Position numbers and translations under genes: made by a program. Below are positions 37,662-45,146 of a DNA stretch of 64,000 nt, one piece after another. The first letter of the stretch is position 1, and the number at the start of each line of letters is the position of its first letter. A model generated the notes under the pieces. The model saw nothing but the letters and a program-made list of their open reading frames with translations. It was not told where the DNA came from and searched no databases. Location: contig NZ_CP076443.1 in assembly GCF_018866345.1 (NCBI RefSeq), positions 457,501-521,500 of the forward strand, given 5' to 3'. Source of the stretch: Gemella sp. zg-570 (GTDB lineage: Bacteria; Bacillota; Bacilli; Staphylococcales; Gemellaceae).

Positions 37662-38423
37662 CTACCAGTTAAAACCCTCATAAGTACTAAATGCTAATTT
37701 ATATAAGGCTAACAATGTATCATTATTAATATTTTCTAATTCCTCAAATACTGTATCTTTTTGCACCTTAAGTTCTTTATTATTGGAAATGATTTTTTCA
37801 ATTGTTATTGGTAACTGCTCGCATATCAAACTAAAAGCATTCTTATCTCCAGTTACTATCTCATAGAATTTATCTATTGAAATTCTTCTTAATTTTTCAT
37901 TTGAAGATTGCTTTGCTTTATCGAGAGTTATTATCCAAGGTATATTTTGAGATTTTTTAGCAATAACCTCTACTAAGGCACAAATACTTTTTTCTTTATC
38001 CTCAGCATTTAATAAATGATTTTGCATTTTCATAAAAGTTTTACTAGATGATGAACTATTCATTGTATTGTGTTTATTCTTCATTTCAACATAATATGTT
38101 ATATCATCATTTCTAAATATTATATCCCACTCCTCATTTGGAACTTCACATTTTTTTATACTTTTAAATAAATTTTGATGAAAATATCCAATTATATTAC
38201 TATTAATTTTATCCCTTTGTCTGTGTATTTCTAATTTTATAATTTCTTCAAAACTTTTATCAAAAACATTTTTATCAAAAAGTAACTTAATTGGATCTAT
38301 TAAATTACTATTAAATTTTTTTAAATTTATGCTCTTTAAAGTTTCATTATACTGTTTCAAAGTATTGGTTACATGATTTTCAAAATCTTCTTTTGAAATA
38401 AAATTTAATTTATAAGTTTCCAT
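37662..38423 (-). CDS. Eco47II-type restriction endonuclease (predicted GGNCC)
   Basis: This 253-residue protein fits the Eco47II/Sau96I endonuclease family. Diagnostic pieces are FNSNLIDPIKLLFDK, SFEEIIKLEIHRQRDK, IIGYFHQNLF, and a likely nuclease core EEWDII...YYVEMKNKHNTMN followed by VEVIAKKSQNIPW. Known members cut GGNCC; that specificity is inferred here. The ATG overlaps the methyltransferase end by 14 bp, and its GGAGG lies inside that gene. Confidence 0.85.
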   Translation of the reverse strand: METYKLNFISKEDFENHVTNTLKQYNETLKSINLKKFNSNLIDPIKLLFDKNVFDKSFEEIIKLEIHRQRDKINSNIIGYFHQNLFKSIKKCEVPNEEWDIIFRNDDITYYVEMKNKHNTMNSSSSSKTFMKMQNHLLNAEDKEKSICALVEVIAKKSQNIPWIITLDKAKQSSNEKLRRISIDKFYEIVTGDKNAFSLICEQLPITIEKIISNNKELKVQKDTVFEELENINNDTLLALYKLAFSTYEGFNW

Positions 38424-39438
38424 TTTTTAATTCCTCCAACTTTTTTAATATTTTTAAACCTACCTCTTTAGCTAAATTACACGGAACAGCATTCCCAACT
38501 TGTCTATACTGAGACCCCATTGCTCCAGTAAATATCCAATCATCTGGAAAAGATTGAATCCTTGCATTTTCTCTAACTGTAAATGGTCTAACTTCCGTTG
38601 GATGACATCTATCTGTCTGTTTCATTTGAGGCGTAGTTAAAACTGTTAAAGATGGTTCATTTAAACTTAATCTTCTCAATATACCAGTTCTTCCACCAGC
38701 CATATGCCAACAAGATTTCATATAATCTTTAGCAATATCTTCTGGAATATCTCTCCAATATCCTCCTGGTGGTACTAAAGCAAAAATATTCTCTTTAGTT
38801 TTTGAATACTTAGCACCTAAACTACTAGGAACATTTTTTAAAATATCTGATAATACTGGCTTATATTGATGTTTTTCTGGATATGAAAATTCTTTATTAT
38901 TTAATAAATCTATTCTTATTCCTACAACAATTAGTCTTTCTCTTTTTTGTGCAACACCATAATCCCAAGCATTTAATACTTCATAAAATATTTTATAACC
39001 CTCTTGTTCAAAAATATTTATAATAGTTTTAAATGTTCTACCTTTATCGTGAGATAATAAACCTTTTACATTCTCAAATAATAACATTTTAGGTTGTAAC
39101 TTATTTAAAAAAACTGCGTAATGATAAAACATTGTACCTCTAACATCATCAAGTCCAAGTCTTTTGCCAGCATAACTAAAACTTTGGCAAGGAGTTCCAC
39201 CTGATAATAAGTCCAATTTTCCCTTTTTTATATTAAATTCTTTCTCCAAATCTCTTTTAGCAACAACTTCTATATCTTCACAAATAACATTCCATTTTGG
39301 TCTATTTATTTTCAATGTATTAACAGCATTTTTATCATATTCAACTAATCCAATATGATTAAAACCAGCTTGTTCTAACCCTAACGCCAAGCCACCTGCA
39401 CCTGCAAAAAGTTCAATACTTGTATATATATTATTCAT
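38410..39438 (-). CDS. DNA cytosine-5 methyltransferase of the Eco47II-type system
   Basis: This 342-residue C5 methyltransferase has motif I (ELFAGAGGLALGLEQAGF), motif IV with catalytic Cys (GGTPCQSFSYAG), VI (ENVKGL), VIII (QKRERLIV) and X (QVGNAVPCNLAKE). The target-recognition region lies around MAGGRTGILRRLSLNEPS. It should protect GGNCC. The start is the ATG at 39438 (NNIYTSIELFAG), with GGAGG upstream. It overlaps the control gene by 8 bp. Confidence 0.92.
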   Translation of the reverse strand: MNNIYTSIELFAGAGGLALGLEQAGFNHIGLVEYDKNAVNTLKINRPKWNVICEDIEVVAKRDLEKEFNIKKGKLDLLSGGTPCQSFSYAGKRLGLDDVRGTMFYHYAVFLNKLQPKMLLFENVKGLLSHDKGRTFKTIINIFEQEGYKIFYEVLNAWDYGVAQKRERLIVVGIRIDLLNNKEFSYPEKHQYKPVLSDILKNVPSSLGAKYSKTKENIFALVPPGGYWRDIPEDIAKDYMKSCWHMAGGRTGILRRLSLNEPSLTVLTTPQMKQTDRCHPTEVRPFTVRENARIQSFPDDWIFTGAMGSQYRQVGNAVPCNLAKEVGLKILKKLEELKNGNL

Positions 39439-39655
39439 TAAACGAATTTCCTCCTGATTTACAATAACAAATAATTTCGCCAATATCACATTCAAGTGCC
39501 TCACATATTTTCTCAATATTCTTTAAAGATATATACTCATTCTTACCCATATTTGCTATGCAATTTGTTGTTAAATTTGCTTTTTCTAATAAATCTTTTT
39601 TCTTCATATTTCTTGATTTTAAAATATTCCATAACGGATCATACGATATGTTCAT
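39431..39655 (-). CDS. Xre-type control protein of the restriction system
   Basis: This 74-residue helix-turn-helix protein matches the short Xre/HTH_26 type (DPLWNILKSRNMKKKDLLEKA, then KNEYISLKNIEKICEALECD). It overlaps the methyltransferase start, so control, methyltransferase and endonuclease form one transcript. It probably times endonuclease expression as C proteins do, though it is not the classical C.PvuII type. The ATG at 39655 follows AGAGGA. The longer frame (start at 39715) would run through the promoter. Confidence 0.8.
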   Translation of the reverse strand: MNISYDPLWNILKSRNMKKKDLLEKANLTTNCIANMGKNEYISLKNIEKICEALECDIGEIICYCKSGGNSFNE

Positions 39656-39686
39656 ACTATCCTCTCTTGCCTTTTTATTTTGTTTA

Positions 39687-39719
39687 ATTATAACAAAAAA
39701 CTTGAGTTTTCTCAAGTTT
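39687..39719 (-). promoter_or_regulatory. Restriction operon promoter inside a terminator hairpin
   Basis: On the minus strand TTGAGA (39715-39710) and TATAAT (39692-39687) are 17 bp apart. The -35 lies within a perfect inverted repeat, AAACTTGAG (39698-39706) and CTCAAGTTT (39711-39719), followed by a T-run. That repeat also looks like the terminator of the small gene upstream. The repeat may further serve as operator for the control protein. Confidence 0.65.
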
Positions 39720-39728
39720 CATTATCGG

Positions 39729-39917
39729 TTATATTAACATTTCATCGAACATATCATTCAAAAGATTACAAGGACTATTTAAGTATTCGTTATATATACT
39801 ATCTAACACTTTTTCATCATCTATTCCTTTTTCTATACTGATTATCGCCTTTATATAGTTTTCATAATCTTCTTTTTCTAGTTCTTCTAATTTCTCTTTA
39901 TATTCTTTCCATTTCAT
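39729..39917 (-). CDS. Small acidic protein of the mobile element, unknown
   Basis: This 62-residue frame is rich in Lys, Glu and Asp (MKWKEYKEKLEELEKEDYEN) and probably helical. Its ATG overlaps the end of the decayed coiled-coil copy upstream. It ends just before the hairpin that carries the restriction promoter. No family recognised. Confidence 0.45.
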   Translation of the reverse strand: MKWKEYKEKLEELEKEDYENYIKAIISIEKGIDDEKVLDSIYNEYLNSPCNLLNDMFDEMLI

Positions 39918-39923
39918 TTTTAT

Positions 39924-40141
39924 TTTTCTCCATTTCTTTTAGTTCTAATAATTTAATTCCACTTTGTCTTAATCTTTTTATTTTCTCTTGTTTTAACTGT
40001 TCTCTTTTTATCTTGTATCTTTCTTCATATTCTTTTTGTTTTCCGTTAGCTTTTCGTTTTAGATAGTTATTATGTAATTTTAATCTGTGCTCTTCTTTTT
40101 TCTTTTCTTCTTATGATAATATTATCTTTTCCTCTATACTT
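39924..40141 (-). repeat. Copy 1 of a diverged 218-bp duplication
   Basis: The minus strand encodes a Lys/Glu/Arg-rich helical segment: KIILS, then (after a TAA) LKLHNNYLKRKANGK and SGIKLLELKEMEK. It is preceded by AAGGAG and a would-be start mutated to ATA. The same sequence recurs at 41804-42022 (LKLKANGK, NGIKLSELKEMEK), with a TAA at the same column. Both copies look non-functional. Confidence 0.75.
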
Positions 40142-40190
40142 AATTTTAATTTTTTCTTATTTTCTGTTTGTATATTTGCTCCTTTCTTGA

Positions 40191-40224
40191 AATAAAAAAG
40201 CGACTAAGATTTTTCTCAATCGCT
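40191..40224 (-). terminator. Terminator of the secreted-protein operon
   Basis: A 12-bp stem with two G-U pairs (40197-40208 with 40213-40224) reads on the minus strand into a T-run. It lies about 110 bp below the secreted-protein gene. Confidence 0.75.
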
Positions 40225-40333
40225 TAAATATTTAATATATATTTGTTTTTATAGTATAAGAATTTTAATTTTTAACCTATGAAAGTAAATTTATTATTCT
40301 TTTCTTCTGAAAAAAATATTGAATTGTTAATAA

Positions 40334-40879
40334 TTATCCCCAAATAGCACATTTACCTGCAGATATAGCCAACTGTGCAACTATTCCTGCAACATTAGTT
40401 TTCAATCCAAATTTTACTAATTTTTTTGTTACATATTCAGCTGTTTCTCCCCACATCTTTCCTTCAATATAACCTCTTAGATTTCCAGACATCAAATCAA
40501 CAAGTTCCATCCCTGGGATCATTCCTACTAATTCTTCTCCCATGCAAGATACAAAATCCCTGTCTTCTAATTCGGCCTTTAAATTTGCTGAAAGATTCTC
40601 CTATTTATAAATCCTTTCTATTCCCATTGCTACTAAGGGTGCCTTCTCATTGCCGTATTTTTCAATTAACAAATCTTTATTTACATATAAAATTCCATTT
40701 TTATAACTTGTTGCTTCTTCAAATAAAAATATTAACTCTTTTTCTATATCATTTTTTAAAGTCTCTACTTCAGATTTATTAGAAACAACCTTGTTGTCAT
40801 ATGCATATACAGATACAGTACTTCCAAAAGTTCCCATTAAAATATTTAAGGCTAAAAATATTGATAATATCTTTTTCAT
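40334..40879 (-). pseudogene. Secreted protein of unknown family, interrupted by TAG
   Basis: One frame runs from the ATG at 40879 to the stop at 40334 except for a TAG at 40601-40603. The N-terminal part (92 codons) has a clear signal peptide (KKILSIFLALNILMG...VYAY) and a helical stretch. The remainder (ENLSANLKAELEDRDF, then a Gly- and Ala-rich hydrophobic end GIVAQLAISAGKCAIWG) stays free of stops for 88 codons. Intact it would be a 181-residue exported protein with a hydrophobic C-terminus, a build seen in some bacteriocin precursors. No family is firmly recognised. It lies 2 bp after the PH-like gene. Confidence 0.6.
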
Positions 40880-40881
40880 AA

Positions 40882-41334
40882 TTAAGTCTTCCTGAAAAAA
40901 TTATTTTCTTGTAAATAATTAAAATTTTCTTTTACAAAGCCGTAAATCCCCTGAAATTTATCTACTTCATAAGAATAAATTTTACCACCGGCTTTCCAAG
41001 AAATAATATGTTTTGTCATTTTTTTTTCAATATTGAAATCACTAATTTCATTATGTTTATATTTATTAAACGAAATTTCTCCTCTTTTTAAAAAATCTAG
41101 TACTTCTCCTGAAATTCTTGCTTCATATATTGCGTCACTAGTGAAAACTAGTAAATATTGTAAAGATGCATCTATAGCATTATAAGTACTATTAATAAGC
41201 AATTTTATTAAACCTTCTTTTATACTACGATTCTTTGTTACGATTAAGTAATTATTTTCTTCAGGTATATTATTATTTTGTAATAATTCAATAATCTTAC
41301 TTTTATCAAAATCATTAAACAATAGACTTTTCAT
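40882..41334 (-). CDS. Cytosolic protein, possibly PH-like domain
   Basis: This 150-residue protein has no signal or membrane segment. An N-terminal helical part is followed by beta-rich sequence (QYLLVFTSDAIYEARISG, ISFNKYKHNEISDFNIEKK, HIISWKAGGKIYSYEVDK) and a last helix. The pattern resembles bacterial PH-like (YokE/bPH) domains. AAGGAGGTG precedes the ATG. It may act with or protect against the secreted product just downstream; that is inference from position only. Confidence 0.5.
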   Translation of the reverse strand: MKSLLFNDFDKSKIIELLQNNNIPEENNYLIVTKNRSIKEGLIKLLINSTYNAIDASLQYLLVFTSDAIYEARISGEVLDFLKRGEISFNKYKHNEISDFNIEKKMTKHIISWKAGGKIYSYEVDKFQGIYGFVKENFNYLQENNFFRKT

Positions 41335-41381
41335 AAATATACACCTCCTTTTTATAACTATAACATACTAGAAAAACTACA

Positions 41382-41429
41382 TTAAAACTTATCTCCGTTC
41401 TTATACCTCTGAGGATTAATATTTTTCAT
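41382..41429 (-). CDS. 15-residue micro-ORF with strong ribosome site
   Basis: AGGAGGTGTTAAGT precedes an ATG at 41429. The frame encodes MKNINPQRYKNGDKF and stops at 41382. It lies between the Xre regulator and the PH-like gene, on the same strand. It could be a leader or signal peptide or chance. Confidence 0.25.
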   Translation of the reverse strand: MKNINPQRYKNGDKF

Positions 41430-41461
41430 ACTTAACACCTCCTATTTTTATTTTATATAGA

Positions 41462-41692
41462 CTACTCACAACAATAGCATTTATATTCTCCGTTTCCATC
41501 CAAATCAAATAATCTATATATACAATTATCTAATGCTTTTGAAATTTTATTGGCAAATACTAATGAAGGTACTTCTCTTTTATTAGCTTCTAAAAAACTT
41601 ATATACTGTCTTGAAACTCCTCCAATTCTTTCTGCTAATTCACTTTGTGTAATTTTCAATTCTTTTCTTCTCTCTTTTATTCTATTATTCAA
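41462..41692 (-). CDS. Xre-family transcriptional regulator
   Basis: This 76-residue one-domain HTH protein has the classical core (RIKERRKELKITQSELAERI, then SRQYISFLEANKREVPSL). The tail is Cys-rich (YKCYCCE), unusual for this type, and could bind metal. It leads a minus-strand group with the micro-ORF, the PH-like protein and the secreted protein, and probably controls them or the element. Confidence 0.8.
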   Translation of the reverse strand: MNNRIKERRKELKITQSELAERIGGVSRQYISFLEANKREVPSLVFANKISKALDNCIYRLFDLDGNGEYKCYCCE

Positions 41693-41803
41693 TCATTTCA
41701 CCCCTTTTTTTATAGCATAGCATATCTATTTAAGTTTTGCAAGCTATTAGTTGCATTTTTTATTTGTTTTTCATATTTTTTATATAAAAACTATTCTATT
41801 TTA

Positions 41804-42022
41804 TTTTCTCCATTTCTTTTAGTTCTGATAACTTAATTCCATTTTGCTTTAATTTTTTTAGTTTATCTTGTTTTAGTTGTTCTCGTTTTACCTTATAGCT
41901 TTCTTCATATTCTTTTTTGCTTACCGTTTGCTTTTAGTTTCAAGTAGTTATTGTGTAGTTTTATTCTTCTTTCTTCTCTTTTTAGTTCTTATTCTGCTAA
42001 TATTATCTTTTCTTCCTCACTT
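41804..42022 (-). repeat. Copy 2 of the 218-bp duplication, at the recombinase 3' end
   Basis: This is the counterpart of 39924-40141, overlapping the last codons of the serine recombinase. Here the helical segment (ISEEEKIILAE, stop, ELKREERRIKLHNNY) is frameshifted again near KANGK. The pair brackets the cargo genes at 40.3-41.7 kb. Confidence 0.75.
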
Positions 42023-43617
42023 ATTTTTTTCTTGTGGAGGTTTGTAACTATCTAAATAAATATCTATCCGTTGTGGTGATGTAGGAGATCCTTTTATATC
42101 TCTTTCATATACAATAATTTTTTTCGATAAATTCATTGTTCATATATGTTGTTAGTTCTTCAAATGTATTGTATTTTCCAATTAACTTTATAAATTTTTT
42201 TATTCCATCTTTTTATGTGTTATATTTTTTATCTTTTGTTCAATTCCTTTTAATTCTTCAGTAAGTTTTAGTTGTTCATCTTCATACTGTACATTTAATA
42301 CTTCATATCTTGTGCTTGGTATTTTTTCTAAAATCATATCTTCATATATTCTACACATTAGTTTTTCTAAAATTTTTATCCTATGCTTACATTCTGTTTC
42401 TCTTGCAAGATTGTATTCTATTTCCTCTTTTTCCTTTTCTTTCATTTCATCAGTTGCAGATAATATAAATTCATCTTTATCAAGTTCTATTTGCTTTTTT
42501 ATATCTTCTAGTATTTGTTTGATGAGTTCTAATACATTTTCTGCCTTTATTCTGTGTGCCGTTTTGCACTGACTTCCACAAGGTGTCTTTGTATATGAAC
42601 TACAAGTATAGTAAGGGATATTTTTGTAATTGTATGTTATGTGAACATACATTATGCTTCCACAATCACTACAATATAAAAGTCCACTTAGTGAGTGAAA
42701 TTCGCCCCAACCATTTGGGTATCTTTTTACATTTCCTCTTATTCTTTGAACATTATTAAATGTTTCTTGGTCTATGATTGGCTCGTGTGTATTTTCGAAT
42801 ACCAACCACTTATCTTCTGATACATACTTACTTTTTTTGTCTTTAAAGTGTTTTCTTGTTTTAAAGTTTACTGTATGCCCTAAATATTCTTGTCTTTTTA
42901 AGATATTTGCTATGGTTGAACTACACCAACGATATGGATAATTTAATTGAGTTGTTTTATATAATCCCACTTTTAGTCTTTGTTGATGTACTGCAGGTAT
43001 TGGTACTTGTTCATCTTCTAATATTCTTGCGATACGATAAGGTCCTGCTCCTTTCATTGTTAAATCAAATATTCTTTTTATTGTTTTTGCTGCTACTTTA
43101 TCGACTATCCATTTATTGCTATCTATCTGTAAGGTGCTGTATTAGCCGTTGGCTTTTCGCTTTCACCTTTCACTTTAAAAGTTGACTTTATTTTCCTTGA
43201 TGCACCCCTTGCATACCATTCGTTCATAATATTTCTAAAAGGGCTGAAATCATCTTCTTTGTAAAAACTATCTACATTATTATTTATGGCAATTAACCTA
43301 ACTCCTTTTTGTCTTATTAATTCCATAAATTGACCAACTTTTAAATAATCACGCCCTATACAGCTCATATCTTTTACAATAACTGTTCCAATATTTCCTA
43401 TATTGACTTGTTCCATCATTAATGTAAAACCAAGTCTATCAAATCTTTTTCCACTTATACCATCATCTGTAAAGTGAATGATATTATCTAAATCATTTTT
43501 GCTTGCATATTCTTCAAGTATTTTCTTTTGGTTAGAAATACTATTACTTTCTCCTTGAAATTCATCATCACGACTTAATCTCTCATAAAGTACTGTTATC
43601 TTTTTAAAATTTCTCAA
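42017..43617 (-). pseudogene. Large serine recombinase, frameshifted (TnpX-like)
   Basis: The N-terminal resolvase domain (43617-43123) keeps the catalytic Ser (LYERLSRDDE) and the GISGKRFDRLGF motif with Arg. A frame change near 43130 follows; DSNKWIVDKVAAKTIKRIFD reads in another frame. Then comes the recombinase and zinc-ribbon region (42200-43057: GPYRIARILED, LSGLLYCSDCGS) with a coiled coil. After a second shift near 42200 the DUF4368-type end appears (FEELTTYMNNEFIEKIIVYE). Such enzymes integrate and excise mobile elements and sit at one end. This one should be inactive. Confidence 0.88.
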
Positions 43618-43730: not shown

Positions 43731-45146
43731 AAATTATGATAAAAATTATAAACTAGCAAAAGAATGGATAGAGGGTGAAGATAAACAAAAACAATTTGCT
43801 TTAGAAAGAACAAAGAAAGATATTTATGACGCAATGAAGAGTTTAGAATATGAAATAAATACTTTGTATTAATTACAAGGGCAAACGCCTTTTACATCTT
43901 CAGGTTTCGACCTTGGAGAAGATTTTTTCATTCGTGAAGTTCAAAAAGCTATCTTAAAAGTAAGAATTAATAGTTTAGGAATAGAAAAAAGAACTGCCAT
44001 ATTTACAAAAATTATATTTACACTGAAAGATGGATTGAATTTGAAAGAAACAGATCCTAATTATGACATAAAAAAATTAGCTTTGGAATGTTCTATTAAG
44101 AGAATGTATCCTGATGTTATCATGTATTAGACACTAGTAAAAATTACTGGTTCTTGCAAAACAGCTATGTCTTACCGTTCATTTTTTCCAGCTTGGCAAG
44201 ATGAAAATGGGAATAATATTGAAAGTGGTAGAATGAATTTGGGAGTAGTAACACTTAAATTAATACGCATAGCTATTGAATCAAATGGCAATAAAGAAAA
44301 ATTTTGGAAAATATTACAAGAAAGATTGCATATCTGTAGAGATGCTTTAGTTTATCGTGCCAAAAGATGTGGGGAGGCAAAACTAGAAAATGCAGTAATT
44401 TTATATATGCATGGAGCTTTTGGAAAAAGGTTAGAAGCCAGTGAAAATGTTAGCAAATTATTTAAAAATAAATGTTAAACTCTATCTTTAGGATACATAG
44501 TACTTTATGAAGTTGCTGGTGTATTTTATGGAGGCGATTTGGAATAAAATAAAGAAGCAAAAGATTTTACCCTAGAAATAATGAAAGAGTTAAAACGTAA
44601 TGTTGATGGATGGGCTGCCAAATATGACTAATGGTTTAGTATCTATTCTACACCCTCAGAAAGTTTAAAATATAGATTTTACCGAATATATTAAAGAAAA
44701 ATACGGAAGTTTAGAAAATATTAATGACAAAGATTATTATAAAAATTCATATCACTATGATGTTAGTAAAAATCCTACTCCACTTGAGAAATTATATTTT
44801 GAAAAAGATTATCCAGATTATGCAAGTGTTGGTTTTATTCACTACTGCGATTACCCAGTTCTACGTTAAAATCCTAAAGCTCTAGAAGCTGTTTGGAATT
44901 ACGCCTATGACAAGATTGGATATTTAGGAACTAATACGACCATAGAAAAATGTTATGAATGTGGTTGTTAAGGAGATTTTGAACCAAACTAAAAAAAGAT
45001 TCAAATGCCCATAATGTAGCAACAGAAATACAAAAACTTGTGATATTGTTAAGAGAACGTGTGGTTACTTGGGTAATCCACAAGCACGACCAATGATTAA
45101 GGGATGGGGCAAAGAAATAGTTTTTCGTGTTAAACACATGAAATAA
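43731..45146 (+). pseudogene. nrdD: Anaerobic ribonucleoside-triphosphate reductase NrdD, 5'-truncated and broken
   Basis: Class III ribonucleotide reductase sequence starts abruptly (NYDKNYKLAKEWIEGEDK) at roughly residue 240 of a normal protein. It continues LQGQTPFTSSGFDLGE, LALECSIKRMYPDVIM, SGRMNLGVVTL, CRDALVYRAKRCGEA and near the end CDYPVLR, ECG and RTCGYLGNPQARP (the glycyl-radical region). At least six stops or shifts interrupt it (e.g. TAA after INTLY, TAG after PDVIMY, TAA after FKNKC). The missing 5' part is not elsewhere in the window, and no nrdG follows. The enzyme makes dNTPs without oxygen; here it is dead. Confidence 0.9.

What the first reader, a model, noticed from the sequence alone, without database searches (positions are those of the whole stretch)
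40334..41692. Unrecognised cargo group: Xre regulator, micro-ORF, PH-like protein, secreted protein
Four minus-strand units lie together, bounded by a terminator, inside the mobile element: an Xre regulator with a Cys-rich tail, a 15-codon frame with a strong ribosome site, a cytosolic protein with PH-like pattern, and an exported protein with a hydrophobic Gly/Ala-rich end. The last two are 2 bp apart. This layout could be a secreted toxin or bacteriocin with a self-protection protein, or a small signalling system.
Basis: inference. Interest (0 to 1): 0.5.

Follow-up and report, generated by a model that had tools for sequence, protein, structure and literature searches.

The report
Broken bacteriocin gene with intact partner
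On a mobile piece of DNA, a bacterium carries a damaged gene for a secreted antibacterial protein next to an intact gene that probably protects against it, and both sit behind a small regulator-plus-tiny-peptide switch that seems to be reused in front of other secreted proteins.

Summary
In detail: an Xre gene, a 15-codon frame, a 150-aa protein and an exported protein lie at the stated places, before a terminator. The exported gene has an in-frame TAG (40601-40603). Its two halves match, in order, the EntV / streptococcin A-M57 bacteriocin family (NF058576, below the equivalog cut-off), with the family's two C-terminal cysteines. The same pair exists in mitis-group streptococci: intact in Streptococcus sp. 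M334 (toxin C-half 71%, partner 24% identical), toxin-broken in S. mitis 1001175st1_H6. In 22 of 24 named streptococcal loci the partner stands alone, under purifying selection (median dN/dS 0.215). I read it as a new kind of immunity protein for this family (inferred; models weakly PH-like). Unexpectedly, the Xre's Cys-rich tail and the micro-ORF recur: a micropeptide with core NPQRY[K/R]NGD precedes other secreted-protein genes in three viral contigs, twice behind an Xre with such a tail. This looks like a portable front end with exchangeable secreted cargo; its mechanism is unknown.

The parts
41462..41692 (-). Xre regulator, 76 aa, TTG start; C-terminal tail CIYRLFDLDGNGEYKCYCCE shared with other Xre proteins of mobile DNA
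   Evidence: HTH_3 E=3.9e-13; 45% identical to the L089 Xre with aligned cysteines; tail relatives L112, L123, L124
41382..41429 (-). Micro-ORF MKNINPQRYKNGDKF (15 codons) with ribosome site AGGAGGTG; conserved core NPQRYKNGD
   Evidence: Sequence; core found in L088, L089 and as NPQRYRNGD in L112; 0 matches in 100 shuffles of the window
40882..41334 (-). Partner protein, 150 aa, intact, no signal peptide (by eye) and no transmembrane-like stretch; probable immunity protein, weakly PH-like
   Evidence: 0 Pfam and NCBIfam families, only weak PHROG matches; convincing relatives only in mitis-group Streptococcus; max 19-residue hydropathy 0.89; models
40601..40879 (-). N-terminal piece of the EntV-family bacteriocin gene: Sec-type signal peptide (by eye, ...VYA|Y) and pro-region; ends at the in-frame TAG 40601-40603
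   Evidence: NF058576 profile 1-69/162, E=3.2e-4; 48% identical to the M334 homologue
40334..40600 (-). C-terminal piece in the same frame (88 codons + stop): mature bacteriocin domain with the two conserved cysteines
   Evidence: NF058576 profile 87-162/162, E=1e-10; 71% identical to the M334 homologue; only PDB hit is EntV 7roa, E=1.3
40198..40225 (-). Intrinsic terminator after the pair
   Evidence: 12-bp stem plus T-run; 2 sites found in 39700-42300, 0.2 expected
39919..40147 (.). Direct repeat copy on the low-coordinate side of the cargo
   Evidence: D1 and D2, 87% and 77% identical to 41799-42028, spacing about 1880
41799..42028 (.). Direct repeat copy on the high-coordinate side of the cargo

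Best explanation
The cargo is a bacteriocin unit. The last gene encodes a Sec-exported precursor related to EntV, streptococcin A-M57 and dysgalacticin: signal peptide, pro-region, and a C-terminal domain closed by one disulfide that acts on competing bacteria after proteolytic release. The preceding gene, close enough for translational coupling, encodes a cytosolic PH-like protein that most likely gives immunity, perhaps by shielding the membrane target (for dysgalacticin the glucose/mannose PTS). In the window the toxin gene is inactivated by a nonsense codon while the partner is intact, as expected if immunity still pays when rivals make the toxin. Transcription or translation is probably controlled by the Xre protein and micropeptide upstream, a front end also found before other secreted cargo. 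Shown here: homology, gene order, the stop codon, recurrence of the pair and of the front end, conservation of the solitary partner. Inferred: toxicity, immunity, target, regulation.
For: EntV_fam matches both halves in order and the whole frame across the stop (65.6 bits). Two cysteines aligned with intact relatives. M334 carries the partner and an intact toxin with 8 nt between partner stop and toxin ATG; toxin C-half 71%, N-half 48%, partner 24% identical to the window's. Partner alone in 22 of 24 named loci, no toxin remnant detected there, frame open in 21 of those 22, median dN/dS 0.215 over 210 pairs of these 21, none above 1. A small hydrophobic ORF with ribosome site lies next to 9 of 20 other family loci, 8 of 96 control ORFs and 0 of 3 loci of this type. 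DysI, a membrane-associated immunity protein, is encoded beside dysA (PMC8308785, passages).
Against: No activity or immunity test exists. The score is below the equivalog cut-off (130 bits), also for the intact M334 homologue (62.3). The pair is rare: 2 of 24 named partner loci; 1 of 245 sampled Streptococcaceae genomes has a close toxin copy, and that one has a stop. The partner diverges far more than the toxin (24% against 71%), which is odd for a tightly matched immunity protein. Solitary partners could have a housekeeping role. The lack of the small membrane neighbour is a weak contrast: by the same strict rule 11 of 20 other family loci also lack it.
Confidence: 0.62

Rival explanations
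1. The partner is not immunity but helps make the bacteriocin: it escorts or exports the precursor, as PH-domain proteins DdE and DdF do for the leaderless bacteriocin EntDD14.
For: PH-domain proteins DdE/DdF are reported to transport EntDD14 (PMC9865063 and PMC13262744, passages); the partner precedes the toxin with tight spacing; weak PH-like models.
Against: The precursor carries a Sec-type signal peptide (by eye) and should need no dedicated exporter; the partner is kept without any detected toxin in 22 of 24 named loci; it has no membrane-like segment.
Confidence: 0.12
2. The partner is a cellular protein of mitis-group streptococci with its own function; its place beside the toxin is a by-product of shared transfer.
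For: Solitary copies at one conserved chromosomal site under purifying selection; both named genomes with the pair also have the solitary copy (M334: L068 and L072; 1001175st1_H6: L058 and L073).
Against: The same two genes stand in the same order in two unrelated settings (window mobile element; next to an acetate-kinase-like gene in Streptococcus), and the partner is the gene left intact in both damaged copies.
Confidence: 0.2
3. The micro-ORF is a cis-acting leader or attenuator, or a remnant of the N-terminus of a larger phage protein (INPQHYRNGEIECIDAL type), and no signalling is involved.
For: Ten of 17 relaxed-pattern hits are N-terminal parts of longer frames (76 to 140 codons) reading NPQHY[RK]NG[DE]; the L089 micro-ORF continues similarly (NPQRYKNGDIDCSI). 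The base differences among the cores are mostly synonymous, but the search pattern allowed little else, so this does not separate a kept peptide from a kept RNA.
Against: The four micro-ORFs have R at position 4 (the pattern allowed other residues there), stop 0 to 5 codons after the core, have a purine-rich ribosome site and lie 46 to 61 nt before a gene led by AGGAGG. No Rfam family matches.
Confidence: 0.37
4. All of it is decaying cargo with no present function; the TAG marks a dead operon.
For: Nonsense codon in the toxin; recombinase gene in two pieces.
Against: No frameshift in 88 codons after the stop, 71% identity retained; Xre, micro-ORF and partner have open frames, so decay, if any, is recent.
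Confidence: 0.25

Closest known systems
EntV / EF1097 (enterococcin V583) of Enterococcus faecalis
   Same: Signal peptide, pro-region, C-terminal domain with two cysteines near its ends; profile NF058576; only PDB match of the C-terminal piece is EntV 7roa (weak, E=1.3)
   Different: Window frame broken by TAG; score below the equivalog cut-off; EntV is Fsr-regulated and matured by GelE (PMC3667150 and PMC6606811, passages); no PH-like partner is mentioned in the passages I read
Streptococcin A-M57 (plasmid pDN571, link recalled) and dysgalacticin
   Same: Same bacteriocin family; pDN571 protein scores 209 bits on NF058576; plasmid or mobile location; immunity gene next to dysA
   Different: A 59-codon hydrophobic frame overlaps the end of the pDN571 gene (by eye; it failed the strict rule), and DysI is membrane-associated; here the partner is a soluble 150-aa protein
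PH-domain proteins DdE/DdF of the leaderless bacteriocin EntDD14
   Same: PH-type proteins encoded with a bacteriocin
   Different: Reported role is transport of a leaderless peptide; I did not compare sequences; the PH fold of our partner is only weakly supported
Xre plus peptide or repressor control of mobile-element cargo
   Same: Short Xre protein upstream of secreted cargo
   Different: CIYxxFDLDGxGxYKCxxC-type tail plus NPQRY[K/R]NGD micro-ORF; I know of no described system with both (recall), and no paper in the searched library holds the NPQRYKNGD or NPQRYRNGD string

Membership tests
EntV family bacteriocin (NF058576, equivalog) | Score at or above the curated cut-off of 130 bits | tested here: not met
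   65.6 bits across the stop; intact M334 homologue 62.3 bits. Filed as a relative, not as an EntV equivalog
EntV family bacteriocin (NF058576, equivalog) | Collinear match over the profile length | tested here: met
   N piece 1-69, C piece 87-162 of 162; 1-162 as one frame
EntV family bacteriocin (NF058576, equivalog) | Two cysteines bracketing the C-terminal domain | tested here: met
   Alignment of 13 rows; required for EntV activity per PMC6606811 (passages). The L020 row lacks the second cysteine
EntV family bacteriocin (NF058576, equivalog) | Sec signal peptide | tested here: inconclusive
   By eye only (MKK, hydrophobic stretch, VYA|Y); no predictor available
EntV family bacteriocin (NF058576, equivalog) | Intact reading frame in this genome | tested here: not met
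   In-frame TAG 40601-40603
EntV family bacteriocin (NF058576, equivalog) | Proteolytic maturation and antibacterial activity | not testable with these tools
   -
DysI-type small membrane immunity protein | Small membrane protein beside the toxin gene | tested here: not met
   0 of 3 loci of this type, against 9 of 20 other family loci and 8 of 96 control ORFs; P0001 max hydropathy 0.89. DysI itself was not compared
Bacterial PH-domain protein | Sequence match to a PH family | tested here: not met
   0 Pfam families for P0001; no PH family for the L054 and L072 partners
Bacterial PH-domain protein | PH fold | tested here: inconclusive
   Eight and seven strands plus C-terminal helix in two low-confidence models; bacterial PH protein 3b77 Z 6.0 and 5.8, values that the tool says may mean only a common arrangement
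Lactococcin 972 family (cargo of L112) | TIGR01653 cut-off 32.1 bits | tested here: not met
   14.3 bits, E=0.038

The most novel reading that the evidence does not exclude
A portable control cassette of mobile DNA: a short Xre protein with a conserved cysteine tail, plus a micropeptide with core NPQRY[K/R]NGD, is placed in front of changing secreted weapons (an EntV-type bacteriocin with a PH-like immunity protein here; a possibly lactococcin-972-like protein, a 478-aa secreted protein and a 241-aa secreted protein in viral contigs). The micropeptide would be the conserved signal, antirepressor or translation sensor that decides when the cargo is made.
Probability: 0.37. Interest if true: 0.68.

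Novelty: new variant of a known kind. Interest (0 to 1): 0.5.

Why it matters
EntV-type bacteriocins are studied as antifungals and antibacterials. This locus and its streptococcal relatives point to a second, soluble kind of partner for the family, kept alone by a number of mitis-group streptococci, which would predict resistance to such bacteriocins. The recurring Xre-plus-micropeptide front end, if functional, would be a small, testable regulatory device shared by unrelated secreted cargo on mobile DNA, of a size that gene finders overlook.

Tried and rejected
Direct searches with the partner found nothing at first: 0 of 52 candidate stretches in genome contigs, 0 of 8 in viral contigs, only chance-level hits in plasmids (E=5) and phages (E=0.4), and only the own genome among 15 of the family. 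A distant Streptococcus relative (E=2.3e-5) opened the path; the other six non-self matches of that call (E 0.003 to 0.043) were dropped as weak. A sequence search of the PDB with the partner gave mainly ubiquitin chains, all on one stretch of about 22 residues, which I take as chance. With the profile A3, which contains the window protein, three other genomes of 157 gave weak matches (E 0.003 to 0.036), none convincing.

A possibly PH-like protein near another streptococcal family member (L079, 195 aa) was compared and is not detectably related. I guessed from recall that the solitary partner is SP_1526 of pneumococcus; the paper found maps SP1526-27 to lmrA/aliB (passage), so the guess was dropped. 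The paper on DysI is not held. Rfam gave no match over the cargo. Fifteen other loci brought in by Xre searches with plasmids, phages and viral contigs show neither the micro-ORF nor a CxCC tail; one (L100) has a CPNC pair near its end, and some are longer or different frames. The micro-ORF patterns were absent from the other 188 and 189 genomes sampled, so the front end is rare. L124 has the Xre tail but leads to a methyltransferase-like gene, and the second Xre of the L112 contig (L123) to a multi-pass membrane protein with no convincing NCBIfam match; neither has the micro-ORF. One dN/dS figure (N-half) was misaligned and is discarded; the repeat gave dN 0.22 with dS not computable; the C-half gave dN 0.19 with saturated dS. 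In one search the strict rule misses some small hydrophobic neighbours that are visible by eye; rows left out before that count: L004, L080 and L082 (duplicates or near-duplicates), L010 and L011 (fragments with stops), and L001, L012, L053 and L078 (further copies of the window and L073 loci). The dN/dS count left out L071 (internal stop).

Full report
Setting. The window is G000:C1:457501-521500 of an unnamed, single-contig genome of 1.56 Mb; I did not identify the species. The four units lie on the minus strand between 41692 and 40334. Next to them are a serine recombinase in two pieces, an Eco47II-type endonuclease and a C5 methylase. Two copies of a roughly 230-base repeat, 87% and 77% identical in its two parts, flank the cargo at 39919-40147 and 41799-42028. 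A terminator closes the group at 40198-40225.

The exported protein is a broken EntV-family bacteriocin. The frame 40334-40879 has an in-frame TAG at 40601-40603. Searched apart, the first piece matches positions 1-69 and the second positions 87-162 of the 162-position EntV family model (E=3.2e-4 and 1e-10); PHROG 21353 also matches both. Read across the stop by the search tool the match is 1-162, 65.6 bits. The curated cut-off is 130 bits, so it is a relative and not an EntV equivalog; the pDN571 plasmid protein of S. pyogenes scores 209 bits (that it is streptococcin A-M57 is recalled). The second piece carries the two cysteines that align with those of intact relatives (one row, L020, lacks the second); in EntV this disulfide is needed for activity (PMC6606811, passages). 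The only PDB sequence hit is EntV 7roa, at a weak E of 1.3. The family rings in 10 of 157 genomes of the order and 9 of 398 sampled from the class, the own genome counted in both. The own genome has a second, uninterrupted relative at C1:1491880-1492374.

The pair recurs in Streptococcus. The partner has no Pfam or NCBIfam match. A search of 398 genomes of the class found a Streptococcus relative (E=2.3e-5, 25% identity); with that as query 24 named mitis-group loci were found and 24 of 245 sampled Streptococcaceae genomes rang. In Streptococcus sp. M334 (L072) the partner homologue is followed, after 8 nt, by an intact EntV-family gene; S. mitis 1001175st1_H6 (L073) has the same pair with a toxin stopped early. 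The C-terminal half of the window toxin is 71% identical to the M334 protein, the N-terminal half 48%, the partner 24%. In the other 22 named loci the partner stands alone, followed by a cystathionine-synthase-like gene and, in 21 of them, preceded by a peptide-binding-protein-like gene (functions by eye; in L061 that upstream frame was not found whole). No toxin remnant was detected there. One of the 22 (L071) has an internal stop. Among the other 21 solitary copies the median dN/dS is 0.215 over 210 pairs and none exceeds 1. Both named genomes with the pair also have a solitary copy.

Why immunity. In this family the gene next to dysA encodes DysI, a membrane-associated immunity protein (PMC8308785, passages). 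A strict rule (small hydrophobic ORF with ribosome site within 250 bp) finds such a neighbour for 9 of 20 other family loci, for 8 of 96 control ORFs and for 0 of 3 loci of the present type; with three loci that last figure alone proves little. The present type has the soluble partner instead. The partner is retained alone by relatives of the producer and is the intact member in both damaged pairs. This is a usual pattern of immunity genes, but protection has not been tested. Against it: the partner diverges much more than the toxin, and solitary copies could serve the cell otherwise.

Fold of the partner. Two AlphaFold models (pLDDT 59.5 for the window protein, 65.7 for the M334 homologue) show eight and seven strands and a C-terminal helix. 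Many of the best rows of the second-look aligner are PH, PTB or related domains in both, among them the bacterial PH proteins 3b77 (Z 6.0, rmsd 3.3, 93 aligned; Z 5.8, rmsd 4.0, 91 aligned) and 3dcx; the tool warns that Z under 8 may mean only a common arrangement. PH-domain proteins with a bacteriocin role exist: DdE and DdF transport the leaderless EntDD14 (PMC9865063, PMC13262744, passages).

The unexpected part: the front end. The micro-ORF core NPQRYKNGD, searched as degenerate DNA in the viral collection (2.9 million contigs), gave two hits, L088 and L089. Both are tiny frames shortly before a ribosome site and a signal-peptide-like gene. L089 also has a short Xre just upstream, 45% identical to the window's, with aligned tail cysteines. 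A relaxed pattern gave 17 hits: the two above, a third micro-ORF (L112, MSNYMNPQRYRNGD), ten N-terminal parts of longer frames reading NPQHY, and four unrelated frames. L112 again has an Xre with the tail VCIYQVFDLDGTGRYKCLNCNCDNN, then the micro-ORF, then a secreted protein with a sub-threshold lactococcin 972 match. The four micro-ORFs lie 46 to 61 nt before the next gene, which is led by AGGAGG in each case; in the window that next gene is the partner, and the exported gene follows it. Of nine base differences between the window core and the other three, seven are synonymous and two make one K-to-R change. This fits a conserved peptide, but the patterns allowed little else, so it is not independent proof. 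The Xre tail occurs in two further places without the micro-ORF: L123, on the same contig as L112, before a multi-pass membrane protein, and L124, before a methyltransferase-like gene. Conversely L088 has the micro-ORF without an adjacent Xre. The patterns were absent from the other 188 and 189 genomes sampled, and no paper of the searched library holds the NPQRYKNGD or NPQRYRNGD string.

Reading. I take the locus as a mobile bacteriocin unit with a newly noticed kind of partner, its toxin silenced by a nonsense codon, behind a small front end that is reused before other secreted cargo. Whether the micropeptide acts as a signal, an antirepressor or a translation sensor cannot be told from sequence.

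Noticed in passing
G000:C1:1490380-1493874 (L002): A second, uninterrupted EntV-family gene in the own genome, followed by an 89-aa hydrophobic ORF and then another exported protein of 214 aa with two cysteines in its C-terminal part: possibly a second bacteriocin cluster.
   Followed up: partly
39919-40147 and 41799-42028: Direct repeat of about 230 bases flanks the cargo, as if it entered by duplication or recombination within the element.
   Followed up: no
44167-44478: Fragment of an anaerobic ribonucleotide reductase gene (NRDD) beside the broken serine recombinase; may mark a disrupted gene or the element's edge.
   Followed up: no
37662-39516: Eco47II-type endonuclease next to a C5 methylase, with a second short Xre gene at 39431-39715 that could be its controller.
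   Followed up: no
L079, L080: Another EntV-family type in Streptococcus with a 65-aa or 54-aa hydrophobic ORF and, in L079, a 294-aa helix-turn-helix (Rgg-like by eye) gene plus a short hydrophobic ORF upstream: possibly peptide-regulated. L080 has a 287-aa helix-turn-helix gene nearby.
   Followed up: no
L095 2832-5098: The L089 cargo is a 478-aa secreted protein (caspase-like by eye, no NCBIfam match) followed by a 274-aa lipoprotein-like protein, in a prophage-like contig.
   Followed up: partly
plasmid hits: EntV-family relatives sit on plasmids of Staphylococcus (180 of 184 records with a match); the S. aureus rows listed are plasmids of about 3 kb, annotated as hypothetical proteins or not at all.
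   Followed up: no
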